A stretch of 64,000 nucleotides of DNA from Byssovorax sp. (GTDB taxonomy: Bacteria; Myxococcota_A; Polyangia; Polyangiales; Polyangiaceae), in contig JANYGI010000151.1 in assembly GCA_025362495.1 (NCBI GenBank), positions 1-64,000 of the forward strand. The letters are read 5' to 3'. The notes below the pieces were generated by a model. The model was not told the origin of the DNA. It did no database searches and worked only from the letters and a program-made list of their open reading frames with translations. This document shows, piece by piece, positions 6,628-35,656 of the stretch (position 1 is its first letter; the number at the start of each line of letters is the position of its first letter). The position numbers and the translations under genes were made by a program.

Positions 6628-7461
6628 CTACGTCGGCGACTGGACCAGCCGCAGCAGCTCGCTCGCGAAGCGGTCGGGGTGCTCTCGATGCATGAAGTGG
6701 CCGCCGGGCATGGTCACGATCTCGTACGGCCCGGTGTACCAGGCGCGCGCCCGCTCGTACGCCGCGGGAGGCACGATGTCGGTGTCTCCGGCAAACGCCG
6801 CCGCAGGCACGGTGATCTTCCCTCGCAGCGCGGCGGGGAGCCACGGCCGCTGCGCCCGATAGTACCCCAGCGCGGCCTCGAGGCACCCCGGCTCGCGAAA
6901 GGCCTTCTTCACGGCGTCGGTCTCGCCGACTGGCACGCTCCAGCCCGGCGACCACCGCCGCACCAGCTCGTCGATGTACGCGAGGTGCTCGGCGCGGAGC
7001 CGCGCCGCCGCGCCCGGTCGCGAGAGCGTCACGAAATGGCGCACCATCCACAGCATCCGCGGCGTGGGCAGGATCGACGCAGGGTGGGGGATCGCCAGGG
7101 TGATCAGCTTCGTGACGCGCCGGGGACCGAGCGCCGCGGCCGCGAATGCCGCGCTCGCTCCCCAGTCGTGCCCGACGACGATCGCGCTCTCCTCGCCGAG
7201 CGCCTCGATCAGCGCGAGCGCGTCGCGGCCGAGCGTCTCGGAGTCGTACGCTTCGTGCGCGGGGATCTCGGTGGGCGCGTAGCCCCGCGTGAACGGGGAG
7301 ACGGCGCGAAACCCGGCCCCGGCGAGGGCGGGGCGCGCGTGATCCCACGTTTGCGGCGTGTCGGGGAAGCCGTGGAGCAGGAGAACGAGAGGGCCTTTCC
7401 CCTCCTCGACGCAGGTGAATCGGAGCCCGTTCGCCTGGACTTCACGGATGGTCGCGCTCAT
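6628..7461 (-). CDS. Epoxide-hydrolase-like alpha/beta hydrolase
   Basis: A 277-residue alpha/beta-hydrolase. The oxyanion-hole motif is LLLHGFPDTPQTW. The nucleophile elbow VVGHDWGASAA carries Asp rather than Ser, which is typical of epoxide hydrolases and haloalkane/fluoroacetate dehalogenases. The catalytic His is in PGGHFMHREHPDRF near the C-terminus. Two Tyr in the cap region (AYIDEL, GYYRAQR) are compatible with epoxide activation. Start ATG 7461 is preceded by GAGGAGCG; the longer in-frame ORF up to 7728 has no protein-like character. It is transcribed toward the TetR gene but the operator lies between them, so it is probably a separate unit. Confidence 0.82.
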   Translation of the reverse strand: MSATIREVQANGLRFTCVEEGKGPLVLLLHGFPDTPQTWDHARPALAGAGFRAVSPFTRGYAPTEIPAHEAYDSETLGRDALALIEALGEESAIVVGHDWGASAAFAAAALGPRRVTKLITLAIPHPASILPTPRMLWMVRHFVTLSRPGAAARLRAEHLAYIDELVRRWSPGWSVPVGETDAVKKAFREPGCLEAALGYYRAQRPWLPAALRGKITVPAAAFAGDTDIVPPAAYERARAWYTGPYEIVTMPGGHFMHREHPDRFASELLRLVQSPT

Positions 7462-13863: not shown

Positions 13864-15279
13864 TCACCGCAGCTCGTAGATCTGCACTGGCTCGTCGCGG
13901 CCGCGTACCGTCAGCGCCGGCTTCGCCAGCCACGCGGCGTCCGGCATCCCGCTCGCTTCGCGCACCTGCGCCGTCACGAGGAGCTGCGAGCCAAACTGCT
14001 TGTTGAGCGCCTCGACGCGAGAGGCCAGGTTCACCACGTCGCCGATGACCGTGTACTCTTTGCGCATCGCCGAGCCCACGTTGCCGACGACGGCGCGCCC
14101 CGCGTGGAGGCCAATCCCCACCCGCGTCGCGGGGATCTTGCCGGCCACCACGAGCTCGTCCACCCTGGCGAGGATGGCCAGGGACGCCTCGACTCCATGG
14201 CGGCAGTGCTCGTCGTCGCGCAGCGGCGCGCCGAAGATGGCCATGAAGCCGTCGCCGAGGAACTTGTTCACGATCCCGTGGTGGGCATTGACACTCTCGA
14301 TCATGAACTCGAACACCGAGTTCAGATAACCAACGACCTCCTCCGGCGTCCGCTTCTCGGCGAAGGCGGTGAAGCCACGGATGTCGAGGAACATCACGCA
14401 GACCTCGCGCACCTCGCTCTTCACCTCGGCGTTCTGGGCGAGGAGCTGCTCGGCCACGGCGGGCGATACGTGCTGTCCAAAGACGTTGAGCACCCGGTTG
14501 CGGTCCTCGATCGACTCGAGCGTGTTGACGAAGCTCTTCCGCAGGCGCCGCGCCACGAAGCCCGCCGCGAACCCGCTCACCAGCAGGATGCAGGCTTTGC
14601 CGAGGTGATGAGGGAGCGAGCCAGTCCCGTCCTCGGCCTCGGTCCGTGTCCCGACGGCGATGAGCGAGAGCCCCGCGTACTCCAGCGCCGCGACGAGCCC
14701 TGTGAACGACGAGAGCGCGAAATCGAGCCGCAGCGTGGAGAGCAGGATGAAGATGAAGTAGACGAACGACGGCGGGAGCAGCAGCGCGTGGACCGGCTCG
14801 ATGATCGTCATGTAATAGACAATCACGAAGCTCGGCAAGCTCACCTCGATCAGCGCGTTGACGTACCGCCGGAGCGCGGGCGGCTTCTGCTGGCTGCGAA
14901 TGAGGCGCTCGATCGAGTAGAGCGCATAGAACTCGTAGGTGGCCACGACGCCGAGGAAGAGGCCGATCGGGAGGCGATCCACCGGCCCGCGGAAGATCGT
15001 GGCGAGGAGGGTGGGATCGAGCGCGCTGCCCGCGAGCACGACGAACATCGCGATCCCCGGCACGATCGCGAGGAGCGTGGCGCGGAGCCGCTCGGCCACG
15101 AGGATTTCGCGGGTGAGGCGGCGTTCGAGCGCGCTCCGCTCGTCGTTCAGCGGGGCGAGGGTGGCCGCCGCGGGCGCCGGGAGAGCGACCGGAGAAGGGG
15201 CCGGAGCCGCCTCGTCGTCGAGCGGCGATCCTCCGGGATCGATCCGAAATTCAGCGACGGGCGGGGGGGCGAGGGACAT
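13864..15279 (-). CDS. Membrane-bound class III adenylate cyclase
   Basis: A 471-residue protein. A short cytosolic head is followed by about six membrane helices (residues ~65-245), then a class III cyclase domain (~290-440) converting ATP to cAMP. Metal-binding Asp are D299 (FLDIRGFTAF) and D343 (FLGDGFMAIFG). The substrate-specifying pair is K407 (RKEYT) and D414 (VIGD), and transition-state residues N417 and R421 are in VVNLASR. Lys/Asp at the specificity positions supports ATP over GTP. The helical region resembles the integral-membrane sensor of other bacterial cyclases, so cAMP output is probably tuned by a membrane signal. It lies upstream of the M36 protease with a 198-bp gap. Confidence 0.88.
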   Translation of the reverse strand: MSLAPPPVAEFRIDPGGSPLDDEAAPAPSPVALPAPAAATLAPLNDERSALERRLTREILVAERLRATLLAIVPGIAMFVVLAGSALDPTLLATIFRGPVDRLPIGLFLGVVATYEFYALYSIERLIRSQQKPPALRRYVNALIEVSLPSFVIVYYMTIIEPVHALLLPPSFVYFIFILLSTLRLDFALSSFTGLVAALEYAGLSLIAVGTRTEAEDGTGSLPHHLGKACILLVSGFAAGFVARRLRKSFVNTLESIEDRNRVLNVFGQHVSPAVAEQLLAQNAEVKSEVREVCVMFLDIRGFTAFAEKRTPEEVVGYLNSVFEFMIESVNAHHGIVNKFLGDGFMAIFGAPLRDDEHCRHGVEASLAILARVDELVVAGKIPATRVGIGLHAGRAVVGNVGSAMRKEYTVIGDVVNLASRVEALNKQFGSQLLVTAQVREASGMPDAAWLAKPALTVRGRDEPVQIYELR

Positions 15280-31885: not shown

Positions 31886-34072
31886 TCAGCCAGGATCGAG
31901 AACGAGCGCGCCGAAGGCCTCGGGGACGTGAAAGTTCGGCTTGGGCGTACGAGGCGGGCTCCAGGCGAGGAAGTGGCGATCGCCGGTGCCTTCCATGCGG
32001 TACAGGCCGAGCGGGAGGCGCGCGCCTGCCGTGAGCGCAGCGACGATGTCCGGCGCCGTCAGCAGCGCCTCGATCACCGCGGTGTGCGCGGCGGCGTTGC
32101 GCGTCGTCGCGATCTTCGCGCCGCTCGACCACGCCGTGCTCTGCTTGCCGCTGTCGCGATCGATCTCGATGTCGAAGAAGTGACCGAAGGGGCCGAGCTC
32201 GATCTCGAAATAGTGCTTCGGATGCGCGGGATCCGGCGTGAAGAAGATCTCGGCGCAGTCCTCGTTGTAGAGGCCCTTGCGCTCGATCTCGACCGGGCGC
32301 GACGTGTCGACGTGGAGGCCAGCGCCCGAGAGCTCGAGCAGCGCGTGGAGGCCGGCCTTGCTCCAGATGAAGCGGGCGCGCGTGGTGATCCCGCTCGCGA
32401 CGCCGGCGTAGTCGGTCTGCCAGGAGACGGGTGCGGCGCGCGTCCACGCGGCGTCGTCGGACTTGCCGTCGAGGGTGATCGTATCGGTGCCGAGCGGCGC
32501 GGCGTGGGCTTCGGGTTTGCCCGAAGATGCGTGCGAAAGGGCAGGGGGCGCGACCACCGGAGGCGCGGGCGCCGCTGTCGCGGTCGGCGGCGCGAGCACC
32601 TCGGGCGCGGGGACTTGATCGTGATCGTGATCGTGATCGTGATCGGCCGCGGGCGCGGCGCCGGGCGGCGATCCATGGCCGAGCGCGTCCCAATCGGGGC
32701 CGGCGGGCGTCTTCGTCCCCGGGGGATCGAAGTCGATCGTGAAGGGCGCCATCGCCTTGAAATGCACGGGGCGCGGCGAGTCGAGGAGGCTCGCTCCATC
32801 GCCGACGATCGACGTGGCCTTGAGGTCGAGCTTGTAGCGCTTCGCGGCGACCTCGATCAGCGGCGACGTGGTGTGGCCGCCGAGCTCGCGGCCGAGCGTC
32901 GGGTTGTTGTAGAGGCCGAGGAACGCCGAGCCGACGCGATCGACGAGCACCGGGTTCGTGCCGCCGATCGCGACGTGCTCCGCGGTGGGTCGCAGCGATT
33001 GAAACCCGTCGCCGGCCATGCCCGGCGCGCCCTCGGCGAGGACGGCGTCGGGCGTGGAGATCTCGAGCGTGTCGACCATGCGATCGGCGAACGCGAGGAG
33101 CGTGGCGACGTAGAGCGCGCGGTCCTCGGGGAGCTTCTCCTTGCGCTGATCGAGGTACTCGCCGAGCTCCTTGTGCATGCGCCACTTCTGCTTGTAACCA
33201 GGCGCTTTGTCCGAGAGCATCACCGTGCCCTGCATGCCCTTGATCGCCAGCGAGACGACGGCGTAGCGGTGCGCCTTGATCTTCGGGAGCGAGACGAAGA
33301 GGCCGTGATCGAGGGTCTCGGCGAGGATCTTCGGGAGGAGCAGCGTGGGCACGTGCGTCGCGCCGATCCCGGTGATCGCCAGGGGTTTTCCCGGCTGATC
33401 GCCCTCGACGTCGAAGACGCCGTCGTCGTCCATCGCGACGAGATGGACGCCTTCTTCCTTCGCCATCGCGTCGTAGCCGGTGAGGTGCGTAACCGTCTCC
33501 CAGTGCTTGTGCGAGATGCCGCAGCCCTCGGCGATGGTGATCGTTTTGTGGCCGCGGGCCTTGAGGCACTGGACCACGCCGCGGGTGAAGTCGACGTCGG
33601 TGCCGCGCCCATGGACGCCGTCGTCGCCATGGAATTTCTGGGGATCCTTGATGCTGTCGAAGCCGCAGAGGTTGGGCTTCAGCAGCACCGGCGTGTCGGG
33701 CCCGCGCTTCGGAACCACGGCCTCGCAGATGCGTTTTCCGAGCTCGAGCGGTGTGGTGCCCCGGAGCATCGTGACCGGCGAGGTGTCGCTCTTGAGGCGC
33801 TCGATGTGGCGCTTGCGGAGCGCCGCGCCGTCGACGGAGCCCGAGGCGAGGACGCTGGGCCCAGCCTGGTACGGCGCAGAGGCCTGCGTGACGGTGTCGG
33901 CCGAAGCGCTGGCCGCGGGCGCCGAGGCCGACGACGCGGCCGTGGGCGCGATGCTGGCCGGGAGCTCGGCGCCGGCGTCGGCGGCGGCGTCGGGCGGCGG
34001 TGATTTGCCGCAGCCAGCGAGGAGCCCGGCAGCAGCGACGAGGAAGAGCGAGGTTCGAGCGATGAGCGTCAA
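31886..34072 (-). CDS. DUF362 lipoprotein with C-terminal CBM9-like domain
   Basis: A 728-residue exported protein. The signal peptide has lipobox GLLAGC (Cys near residue 21). Residues ~125-420 form a DUF362 domain (VLLKPNLCGFDSIKDP, TITIAEGCG, SLPKIKAHRYAVVSLAIKGM). A low-complexity linker holds DHDHDHDHD (near residue 480). The last ~200 residues (LDGKSDDAAWTRAAPVSWQT, EDCAEIFFTPDPAHPKHYFE) look like a family 9-type carbohydrate-binding beta-sandwich. Many DUF362 proteins carry Fe-S clusters; none is seen here. The fusion suggests a surface protein binding a glycan, with DUF362 of unknown catalytic role. Confidence 0.75.
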   Translation of the reverse strand: MTLIARTSLFLVAAAGLLAGCGKSPPPDAAADAGAELPASIAPTAASSASAPAASASADTVTQASAPYQAGPSVLASGSVDGAALRKRHIERLKSDTSPVTMLRGTTPLELGKRICEAVVPKRGPDTPVLLKPNLCGFDSIKDPQKFHGDDGVHGRGTDVDFTRGVVQCLKARGHKTITIAEGCGISHKHWETVTHLTGYDAMAKEEGVHLVAMDDDGVFDVEGDQPGKPLAITGIGATHVPTLLLPKILAETLDHGLFVSLPKIKAHRYAVVSLAIKGMQGTVMLSDKAPGYKQKWRMHKELGEYLDQRKEKLPEDRALYVATLLAFADRMVDTLEISTPDAVLAEGAPGMAGDGFQSLRPTAEHVAIGGTNPVLVDRVGSAFLGLYNNPTLGRELGGHTTSPLIEVAAKRYKLDLKATSIVGDGASLLDSPRPVHFKAMAPFTIDFDPPGTKTPAGPDWDALGHGSPPGAAPAADHDHDHDHDQVPAPEVLAPPTATAAPAPPVVAPPALSHASSGKPEAHAAPLGTDTITLDGKSDDAAWTRAAPVSWQTDYAGVASGITTRARFIWSKAGLHALLELSGAGLHVDTSRPVEIERKGLYNEDCAEIFFTPDPAHPKHYFEIELGPFGHFFDIEIDRDSGKQSTAWSSGAKIATTRNAAAHTAVIEALLTAPDIVAALTAGARLPLGLYRMEGTGDRHFLAWSPPRTPKPNFHVPEAFGALVLDPG
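32617..32644. repeat. GATCGT microsatellite coding for Asp-His repeats
   Basis: Four and two-thirds copies of the 6-bp unit GATCGT within the DUF362 gene encode alternating His and Asp on the minus strand. The unit number could vary by slippage without frame change. The His/Asp run could bind metal. Confidence 0.8.
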
Positions 34073-34237
34073 GGGAGCGCCTCCAGTCCAGGGGAACGCC
34101 GCCGGGACGCCGCGGATTCTCGCCGATCGACAGGGGCCGCGATAGCAGCTCGCTCGGCCGGCTCAGGCGATGCGTGCGATCGTCATCGGCCGGGCACGAG
34201 CGGCATCCGGTTCCGAGTGGTCGCTCATCCACCACCC

Positions 34238-34295
34238 AAACATTATGTCAACTCGCCGCCGGCCCCCGGCCGGACGGTGAGTTGACATAATGTTT
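34238..34295. repeat. Long hairpin with 17-bp perfect arms
   Basis: Arms AAACATTATGTCAACTC (34238-34254) and GAGTTGACATAATGTTT (34279-34295) are exact inverse copies. The interior adds CCG/CGG and CCGGCC/GGCCGG pairs (34259-34264 with 34268-34273), leaving a 3-nt loop. The whole forms a nearly continuous stem of about 27 bp. No U-tract follows on the minus strand. Confidence 0.85.
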
Positions 34296-34307
34296 CTTAT
34301 GCGAATT
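34280..34307 (+). other. dif-like XerC/XerD recombination site (candidate)
   Basis: The core CATAA-TGTTTC-TTATG (34286-34301) has the layout of a Xer site: two 5-bp inner half-sites around a 6-bp centre. Compared with E. coli dif (from memory), the left arm matches about 7 of 11 and the right arm about 8 of 11. The left arm of the hairpin holds a second, inverted half-site. Could be the chromosomal dif, an element attachment site, or coincidence. Confidence 0.35.
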
Positions 34308-34328
34308 ACGTTAGGCGACAAACGAAGG

Positions 34329-34358
34329 GGAGACGGCGTCCCCCCGGCCGCCGTCTCC
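34329..34358 (-). terminator. Terminator of the BamB-like gene
   Basis: A 10-bp perfect stem GGAGACGGCG/CGCCGTCTCC with a 10-nt loop lies 24 bp downstream of the stop codon; on the minus strand it is followed by CCTTCGTTTGT, a weak U-rich run. Confidence 0.5.
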
Positions 34359-34381: not shown

Positions 34382-35656
34382 TCAGCCTTTCGGCTTCGGC
34401 GTCTGCAGACCCAGGCCGAGGAGCTGGCCGCCGTTCGTCATCACGAAGGCGCGCTTCCCGTACGCCGCCGGCGTCATCGCGAAGCCGTTGCCCGTCTCGA
34501 TCCCGTCGATCATCGCGCCGTCCAGCGGCGAGAACAGGAAGATCCCGTAGCGCGTCGTCCCGACGAGCACGGCGCCCTCGATCGGCACCGGCGCCGTGAT
34601 GCCGCCCTCCGGCAAATTGCATCGCCAGAGCGTGCGGCCGTCGTTCGGATCGAGGCCCCAGAGGCCGTTCAGACCCGAGGATGCCAGCAAGATCTTGCGC
34701 GCCGGCACGTCGGGGCCGACGCCGGTGCGCGACGGGTACGAGGGCTGCTCCCAGAGCACGAGCTCCGTCACGCCGGTCGCCTTGTCGTTGACCCAGGCGC
34801 GCGTGCCGTTCTCGGCGTCGAGCGCGTACACGCCGCCCGCGTACGAGCCGACGAAGATCACCGTTCCCGAGGCGATTTTGTCGTAAATCGGCGTCGTGTC
34901 GACGTCGAGGTAGCGCGGCACGTCGCCGTTCGACGAGGCGGCCTCGGCCTCGACGCCGAGGTCGACCGAGGGCCACTGCTCGGAGCCGTCTTCGATCGAG
35001 TACGCCGAGACGACGCCGTCCGAGAACGCGGCGTAGACCTTGTCGCGGCCGAGGGCCGGGCCCGCGTAGCCCGCGACCTCCATGCCCGCGGCCGGCGTGC
35101 GGTGCTGGTGCCAGCGCAGCGCGCCCGTCCCGGCGTTGATCGCGATGAGGGTGTCGTTGGCGTTGACGATGTAGACGACGCCGTCGCGGAGCACCGGGCG
35201 GCGCGAGACCTCGGCGTTGGTCGCGAAGCGCCAGAGCAGCGCGCCAGAGGCGGCGCGGACCTTGTAAAGCGCGCCGTCGTTGCCGCCGAAATACACGACG
35301 TCTTCGGCGAGGTCGTAGAGCGGCTCGCTCTGCACGGCGGCCAGGGTTTCGAAGCGCCAGATCGTCGAGCCGTCATCGGCGCGGAGCGCGTAGAACCCGT
35401 GATCGCTCGCGCCGACGAAGACGCGGCGGTGGACGTGATCGATCTCGGGGCGCCCGCGCTCGTACTTCTCGCCGAGCTGCCGCGTCTCGCCGGTGAGCGT
35501 GCGGCGAAACTCGACCGAGAGCGCGCTGCCCGGGTGATGAAGCCACAGCGGCGCGTCGGGCGCGCCCGCGGCGCGGAGCGTGTCGCAGCCCGCGGACGCG
35601 AGCGACAGCACGGCGACGACGGCGGCCCCGAGGCCGCCCCAGCGAGTGAGCCGCAT
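34382..35656 (-). CDS. BamB-like PQQ-repeat beta-propeller lipoprotein
   Basis: A 424-residue lipoprotein with lipobox SLASAGC (Cys24). Repeated blades of the form G-YALRADDGSTIWRF, GALYKVRAASGALLWRF, LIAINAGTGALRWHQH, GVYALDAENGTRAWV and GLWGLDPNDGRTLWRC form a PQQ-type beta-propeller. Such proteins act with BamA in outer-membrane protein assembly. The gene starts at the stop codon of the TPR gene upstream (TGATG), reproducing the YfgM-BamB pairing of gammaproteobacteria. BamB assignment rests on architecture and this neighbour; it could be another propeller scaffold. Confidence 0.75.
   Translation of the reverse strand: MRLTRWGGLGAAVVAVLSLASAGCDTLRAAGAPDAPLWLHHPGSALSVEFRRTLTGETRQLGEKYERGRPEIDHVHRRVFVGASDHGFYALRADDGSTIWRFETLAAVQSEPLYDLAEDVVYFGGNDGALYKVRAASGALLWRFATNAEVSRRPVLRDGVVYIVNANDTLIAINAGTGALRWHQHRTPAAGMEVAGYAGPALGRDKVYAAFSDGVVSAYSIEDGSEQWPSVDLGVEAEAASSNGDVPRYLDVDTTPIYDKIASGTVIFVGSYAGGVYALDAENGTRAWVNDKATGVTELVLWEQPSYPSRTGVGPDVPARKILLASSGLNGLWGLDPNDGRTLWRCNLPEGGITAPVPIEGAVLVGTTRYGIFLFSPLDGAMIDGIETGNGFAMTPAAYGKRAFVMTNGGQLLGLGLQTPKPKG

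What the first reader, a model, noticed from the sequence alone, without database searches (positions are those of the whole stretch)
34238..34307. Long perfect hairpin overlapping a dif-like Xer site
A 58-nt hairpin has one arm inside CATAATGTTTCTTATG, which has the CATAA-6-TTATG layout of Xer recombination cores. An inverted half-site in the other arm suggests duplication by an integrating element or a specialised cruciform. The stretch is AT-rich in an otherwise GC-rich region.
Basis: partly seen in the sequence, partly recalled or inferred. Interest (0 to 1): 0.5.

Follow-up and report, generated by a model that had tools for sequence, protein, structure and literature searches.

The report
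Chromosome dif site with copied half-site
The spot is very probably the place where this bacterium's XerC and XerD enzymes separate joined chromosomes, and half of that site has been copied backwards right beside it, possibly as the scar of a broken and repaired chromosome end.

Summary
The hairpin is real, and the dif-like core is almost certainly the chromosome's own dif: on the minus strand 34307-34280 reads AATTCGCATAA-GAAACA-TTATGTCAACT. The layout occurs in 43 of 59 genomes (own included), in 40 of them once, with no hits for the reversed pattern. A BamB-like gene lies nearby in 35 of 57 dif loci, and KOPS-like motifs switch polarity there.

The other arm is a backward copy of the XerD half (11 bp) plus 5 of the 6 crossover bases, found nowhere else in the genome. 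Such copies sit beside dif-like sites in four other genomes of the phylum. In all five the copy enters that genome's own crossover segment by 3-5 nt and stops before the XerC arm.

Within about 200 bp on the XerD side the genome is rearranged: three relatives' neighbours lie on another contig.

Best reading: a fold-back (template-switch) scar from DNA stalled or broken at dif. A selected second XerD site is the main rival. An integrated element is not supported: one dif, and no phage-function families in seven proteins tested. Function is untested.

The parts
34280..34307 (-). chromosomal dif, 28 bp: XerC arm 34307-34297 (AATTCGCATAA), central hexamer 34296-34291 (GAAACA), XerD arm 34290-34280 (TTATGTCAACT)
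   Evidence: pattern in 43 of 59 genomes, one match in own genome, reversed-pattern controls 0; nearby BamB-like gene in 35 of 57 loci; KOPS-like polarity switch
34238..34254 (+). inverted second XerD half-site: XerD arm (34243-34253) plus 5 of 6 central bases (34238-34242) plus one outer base; no XerC arm
34255..34278 (.). GC-rich imperfect inner stem and loop between the two XerD arms
34238..34295 (.). 58-nt hairpin as a whole
   Evidence: fold z -8.2
34327..34345 (-). terminator-like stem-loop 3' of the BamB-like gene, between that gene and dif
   Evidence: pattern scan only
34382..35656 (-). PQQ/BamB-like lipoprotein gene, the conserved XerC-side neighbour of dif
   Evidence: Pfam PQQ_2 3e-39; synteny
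31886..34072 (-). DUF362 + CBM9-like lipoprotein gene, first gene on the XerD side; this side matches none of the six relatives compared
34073..34279 (.). interval that holds the XerD-side rearrangement breakpoint (not resolved further); includes the inverted half-site
   Evidence: no similarity of this interval to the relatives' dif flanks beyond chance-level pieces

Best explanation
This is the chromosome's dif (XerC/XerD dimer-resolution site). Next to its XerD arm lies a short fold-back scar. At some point DNA at dif stalled or broke just beyond the XerD arm. The 3' end folded back on a short GC-rich palindrome and copied the XerD arm and 5 bases of the crossover segment in reverse, and was then joined to other DNA. 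Shown: dif identity by sequence, synteny and motif polarity; the inverted copy; its endpoint in the crossover segment; a synteny break within the 207 bp that hold it. Inferred: the stall or break, the fold-back synthesis, that copy and rearrangement arose together, and that Xer proteins or an Xer nick set the endpoint.
For: dif: 43 of 59 genomes (own included) have the site at up to 3 mismatches, 40 of them once and 3 twice, 0 in reversed-pattern controls. BamB-like gene in 35 of 57 distinct dif loci. GGGNAGGG is 4 forward/0 reverse left of dif and 3/21 right on the 157-kb contig, Fisher p 0.002; twenty sampled 20-kb pieces of a one-contig 11.4-Mb relative give 60/17 before and 14/41 after its dif. 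XerD-like and XerC-like recombinases are present. Copy: exact inverted XerD pairs with gap 0-30 occur in 4 of 377 genomes of the phylum sample, each beside a dif-like site, controls 0; gap 31-60 in 0 of 377. A fifth, G489, outside that sample, was met in a search of 38 relatives of G462. In these five the copy runs 5, 3, 4, 3, 5 nt into the genome's own hexamer, then stops; XerC match 4, 0, 1, 4, 3 of 11. In 81 dif-like loci the inverted XerD arm on the XerD side reaches 11/11 four times; the seven other arrangements reach at most 10. Breakpoint: the PQQ side is shared with six relatives, the XerD side with none (no ORF of 150 aa or more at E 1e-25). The XerD-side genes of three relatives have their own-genome counterparts on contig C205. 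Published parallels: fold-back model for inverted repeats holding two dif sites at the Lactobacillus bulgaricus terminus (PMC5345009, passages); mostly 5-34 bp inverted duplications at yeast breaks by fold-back (PMC11724301, start of abstract in a listing); template switching promoted by drugs that induce DNA-protein crosslinks (PMC7202029, abstract and opening).
Against: No genome shows the step before the event in this lineage; own was the only genome of its genus in the samples. The breakpoint is placed only to 34073-34279, so hairpin and rearrangement need not be one event. In three gammaproteobacteria the hairpin is kept while aligned flanks are 76-85% identical, which hints at selection. 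In the seven non-Myxococcota sites the copy does not run on contiguously into the centre. The search pattern required the whole XerD arm, so shorter copies were missed and endpoints are biased to 11 or more. GC skew is weak: in 10-kb steps it stays mixed to about 80 kb on the contig, and it is erratic in the sampled relative.
Confidence: 0.52

Rival explanations
1. The inverted half-site is a selected second XerD-binding site beside dif, working like the XerD-only sites (XDS) said to unload SMC complexes in Bacillus subtilis, or tuning XerD loading on dif.
For: The XerD arm is copied without mutation in five genomes. G489 carries three tandem copies of the inverted XerD arm (sequence printed). 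Two genomes of one genus (G462, G489) have different XerD arms but match within each genome. Three gammaproteobacteria keep the hairpin. XerD unloading of SMC is mentioned in PMC10945525 (passages); the original paper was not read.
Against: Rare: 4 of 81 dif-like loci. No further site close to GTTGACATAATGT in the 64-kb window. The copy includes 3-5 crossover bases matching the same genome's dif, which points to copying rather than an independent binding site.
Confidence: 0.23
2. Scar or attachment site of an integrative element that exploits Xer (IMEX), such as a filamentous phage with two inverted att sites.
For: Of 11 stretches of viral contigs with an inverted XerD pair, two have, by eye, a dif-like XerC arm next to it (L131, L138). 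A Moraxella genome has two whole dif-like sites inverted. The XerD side of own dif matches no relative compared.
Against: One dif in own genome at up to 3 mismatches. Of seven XerD-side proteins tested, five have ordinary Pfam families and two none; one, a guanylate-cyclase protein, matches PHROG families of unknown function, the other six none. The second copy has no XerC arm. 0 of 122 dif-like sites in the 120 held viral loci (a capped list) have a full inverted XerD arm within 150 nt.
Confidence: 0.1
3. A transcription terminator or RNA hairpin that happens to take in the XerD arm and shields dif from transcription.
For: Strong stem, intergenic, near a gene end; several of the hairpins have further pairs inside the arm.
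Against: The scan reports no terminator at the hairpin on either strand and instead a terminator-like stem between the BamB-like gene and dif. Does not explain why the copy includes the crossover bases.
Confidence: 0.08
4. Assembly or amplification artefact (fold-back chimera).
For: Fold-back chimeras are a known library artefact (recalled); reads are not available here.
Against: The sequence after the copy is not the reverse complement of the rest of dif but other DNA; motif polarity fits both sides; other genomes show the same architecture.
Confidence: 0.05

Closest known systems
dif/XerCD of Proteobacteria and myxobacteria (e.g. Myxococcus xanthus dif in PMC2731167)
   Same: 11-6-11 layout, conserved XerD arm, low G+C, intergenic, near terminus
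   Different: carries an inverted copy of its XerD half next to it; the passages shown of PMC2731167 do not mention such a copy, and 'hairpin' and 'inverted' do not occur in the held main text of PMC3025954
Large inverted repeat with two dif sites at the L. bulgaricus terminus (PMC5345009, passages)
   Same: inverted duplication of dif at the terminus, explained by fold-back after a break
   Different: 38-76 kb there; 17 nt and only the XerD half here
CTX-type attP1/attP2 (PMC5357621, passages)
   Same: inverted Xer sites that can pair on one strand
   Different: there two sites 90 nt apart that resemble the XerC side of dif; here only the XerD half is repeated and no phage is seen
XerD-only sites (XDS) of B. 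subtilis (mentioned in PMC10945525, passages)
   Same: XerD arm without XerC arm in the terminus
   Different: one copy, inverted, directly beside dif; no binding data

Membership tests
chromosomal dif | 28 bp, 11-6-11, with conserved XerD arm | tested here: met
   43 of 59 genomes, own included, at up to 3 mismatches to the pattern built from this site; 16 of 59 had no match at that limit
chromosomal dif | one per chromosome | tested here: met
   one match in own genome at up to 3 mismatches; genome 96.6% complete, 240 contigs
chromosomal dif | intergenic and low G+C | tested here: met
chromosomal dif | at the switch of polar motifs | tested here: met
   KOPS-like GGGNAGGG switches on the contig (motif letters recalled)
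chromosomal dif | at the GC-skew switch | tested here: inconclusive
   means +0.026 left and -0.020 right, but mixed in 10-kb steps; whole-chromosome skew not computable
chromosomal dif | XerC and XerD in the genome | tested here: met
   C166 XerC-like and C163 XerD-like, E 3e-97 and 2e-98 to those models, both just under the curated cut-offs
chromosomal dif | recombines in vivo, FtsK dependent | not testable with these tools
   needs experiment
IMEX / phage att site | element between two dif-like sites | tested here: inconclusive
   no second dif, no phage-function family in 7 XerD-side proteins; contig ends 34 kb away
CTX-type attP pair | second inverted site with a XerC side | tested here: not met
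   second site has no XerC arm, 4 of 11 matches
MITE or dispersed repeat | many copies in the genome | tested here: not met
   no other copy found
fold-back / template-switch inverted duplication | short inverted copy across a small loop | tested here: met
fold-back / template-switch inverted duplication | copy lies at the junction itself | tested here: inconclusive
   breakpoint only placed within 34073-34279
XDS-type XerD site | XerD bound without XerC; SMC unloading | not testable with these tools
   needs ChIP or Hi-C

The most novel reading that the evidence does not exclude
dif is a recurrent break or stall point where fold-back synthesis copies the XerD half-site, and the copying ends inside the six-base crossover segment because an Xer nick or bound XerC stops it. 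Such hairpins would then be readable fossils of failed chromosome dimer resolution, and could seed rearrangements and flips of dif.
Probability: 0.28. Interest if true: 0.72.

Novelty: new variant of a known kind. Interest (0 to 1): 0.5.

Why it matters
It gives a sequence signature (XerD arm plus 3-5 crossover bases, inverted, mostly across a short loop) seen beside dif-like sites in five genomes of the phylum; related hairpins without the contiguous extension occur in other lineages. If it is a scar, failures of chromosome dimer resolution could be read from genomes. If it is selected, it is an extra XerD-binding site at dif. Either can be tested in a laboratory strain.

Tried and rejected
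Chance and dispersed repeat: rejected. Integron attC or insertion-sequence end (a first guess from the flank GTTAGGC): dropped because the hairpin has no other copy and the site is dif; not tested further. Plasmid similarity: one weak hit, E 0.4. Rfam: only matches below the gathering scores. An exact 34-bp search of genome contigs found none; the own genome may be left out there. Tandem repeats as a general feature of the XerD side: not supported, 16 of 75 XerD sides against 14 of 75 XerC sides; starting within 80 nt 8 against 6, p 0.78. A repeat starts within 80 nt in 3 of 4 hairpin loci against 5 of 71 others, p 0.003, post hoc. Link between hairpin and flipped dif: 2 of 3 hairpin loci (G003 and the imperfect G051 flipped, own not) against 4 of 32, p 0.07, not established. 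Remains of dif on the C205 stretch: none of eight short patterns. Placing the breakpoint by similarity: failed. Dropped rows: and one search left out loci with short flanks and G386 (its XerC arm did not fit the filter); of the 35 loci with a BamB-like hit, six hits are weak (24-37% identity). Reversed-pattern controls were not always empty in the looser searches: one hit each in G134 and G142 and in G356 and G438. Confidence went from 0.55 to 0.52 and the novel case from 0.30 to 0.28 for the first of these; the rival of a selected XerD site went from 0.22 to 0.23.

Full report
OBSERVATION. The stretch 34238-34307 is as described. Two 17-bp perfect inverted arms (34238-34254, 34279-34295) enclose a GC-rich imperfect stem. 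The single strand folds far better than shuffles, z -8.2. A 13-mer of the arm with up to two mismatches occurs only at these two places in 64 kb, and no further copy was found in the 10.84-Mb genome.

WHERE IT COMES FROM. One of the same family, G003, holds a contig of the same length and the same dif region as WQZB01000051.1, titled Polyangiaceae; Polyangiaceae is in Myxococcota. So the window is taken to be from Polyangiaceae, by inference.

IT IS DIF. Read on the minus strand, 34307-34280 is AATTCGCATAA-GAAACA-TTATGTCAACT. With a free centre and up to 3 mismatches this is found in 43 of 59 genomes (own included), 40 once and 3 twice, with no hit for the reversed pattern. The central GAAACA is also seen in G018, G029 and G032. 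A PQQ/BamB-like gene lies in the held stretch (mostly 1.5-3 kb to each side) in 35 of 57 distinct dif loci, six of them by weak hits; dif points the same way relative to it in 29 and the other way in 6 (counted by hand). On the 157-kb contig the KOPS-like GGGNAGGG (letters recalled) is 4 forward/0 reverse before dif and 3/21 after it (p 0.002). Mean GC skew is +0.026 and -0.020, but in 10-kb steps it is mixed to about 80 kb. In an 11.4-Mb one-contig relative, eleven sampled pieces before dif give 60/17 and nine after it 14/41; the piece just before dif (2/3) and two of the last three (5/2, 3/1) go against the trend, and its origin was not located. XerC-like and XerD-like recombinases are present, just under the curated cut-offs. 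Published dif features (non-coding, low G+C, near terminus, conserved XerD site) agree (PMC2731167, passages).

THE SECOND HALF-SITE. The left arm is an inverted copy of the XerD arm plus five of six central bases, with no XerC arm. Exact inverted XerD pairs with gap 0-30 occur in 2 of 183 genomes of the order and in 4 of 377 of the phylum sample, each beside a dif-like site, controls 0. With gap 31-60 there are 0 of 377. A fifth genome, G489, outside that sample, has the copy after 52 nt and then twice more in tandem; it also has a second dif-like site. The five copies run 5 (own), 3 (G003), 4 (G386), 3 (G462) and 5 (G489) nt into the same genome's hexamer and then stop; XerC matches are 4, 0, 1, 4, 3 of 11, near chance. 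In G003's genus 11 of 12 genomes have a dif match and by eye only G003 shows the hairpin. An imperfect case is G051 (L064). Over 81 dif-like loci the inverted XerD arm on the XerD side is complete in 4, next best 9 of 11; the seven other arrangements reach at most 10.

ELSEWHERE. A scan of genome contigs (one genome for each of 84,980 species) for dif with a CGCATAA XerC arm and an inverted XerD arm found 8 loci: one Methylomirabilota (second arm with one mismatch), two contigs of one Desulfuromonadales genome, one Moraxella with two whole inverted dif-like sites, three gammaproteobacteria, and the Polyangiaceae contig above. Other XerC arms were not covered. In the seven non-Myxococcota sites the copy does not run on contiguously into the centre, which speaks against a universal endpoint rule. 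In the gammaproteobacteria the hairpin is kept though long aligned flanks are 76-85% identical, and the L084-L085 alignment stops at the hairpin's far end.

REARRANGEMENT. On the PQQ side the window shares genes with G029, G018, G013, G032, G003 and G016 (in G032 and G003 that side is next to the XerD arm, dif being flipped); on its XerD side it shares no ORF of 150 aa or more at E 1e-25 with any (some of the stretches compared were short, down to 1.5 kb). G029, G018 and G013 share their XerD sides with each other. The own counterparts of those genes (a GNAT acetyltransferase, 51% identity, and a GCS2 ligase, 78%) lie on contig C205. Past the GNAT gene, C205 shows no further match to the relatives' dif flanks and none of eight dif-derived patterns. 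So a breakpoint lies between the XerD arm and the first XerD-side gene, 34073-34279; similarity does not place it more closely. That the hairpin marks it exactly is inferred.

MECHANISM. I favour fold-back copying at a stalled or broken end beside dif: a GC-rich tip primes synthesis, the XerD arm and part of the crossover segment are copied in reverse, and the end is joined to other DNA. Parallels: the dif-containing inverted repeats at the L. bulgaricus terminus (PMC5345009, passages), template switching that makes perfect hairpins (PMC8794818, abstract), its promotion by drugs that induce DNA-protein crosslinks (PMC7202029, abstract and opening), and short inverted duplications at yeast breaks (PMC11724301, start of abstract in a listing). 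That an Xer nick or bound XerC sets the endpoint is a proposal. The main rival is a selected XerD site; G489's array, the within-genome match of the arms and the gammaproteobacterial conservation speak for it. An integrated element is less consistent with the data, though two viral contigs with similar sites keep it alive.

NOVELTY. Five searches bear on this (15 of 2,502, 12 of 81, 5 of 5, 8 of 163 and 8 of 13 papers listed). No title or abstract start in those listings names an inverted XerD half-site at dif. Most subscription papers are not in that library. I call it a new variant of a known kind.

Noticed in passing
L303 (G489:C187), about 1495-1700: dif-like site followed by three inverted XerD arms in tandem, each with the same neighbouring central bases; TRF period 42
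   Followed up: partly
L083 (Moraxella), 7244-7294: two whole dif-like sites in inverted orientation, 3 nt apart, with different centres
   Followed up: partly
L082 and L086 (one Desulfuromonadales genome): two contigs with the same dif-plus-hairpin but different flanks; possible element ends or a mixed bin
   Followed up: no
G028:C434, G005:C427, G051:C63, G142:C84, G489:C17: second dif-like sites in genomes that have another one; candidate sites of Xer-using elements
   Followed up: no
dif loci of G032, G003, G024, G017, G002, G051: dif points the other way relative to the BamB-like gene in 6 of 35 loci; in G032 and G003 it seems to have flipped in place
   Followed up: partly
L051 (G003) and L276 (G462), directly after the hairpin: tandem repeats of period about 34 and 40 start at the end of the hairpin
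   Followed up: partly
window 34382-35656: BamB-like gene is a recurrent neighbour of dif in the relatives examined, useful as a terminus marker
   Followed up: yes
window 13864-15279 (-): guanylate-cyclase-domain protein that also matches four PHROG families of unknown function
   Followed up: no
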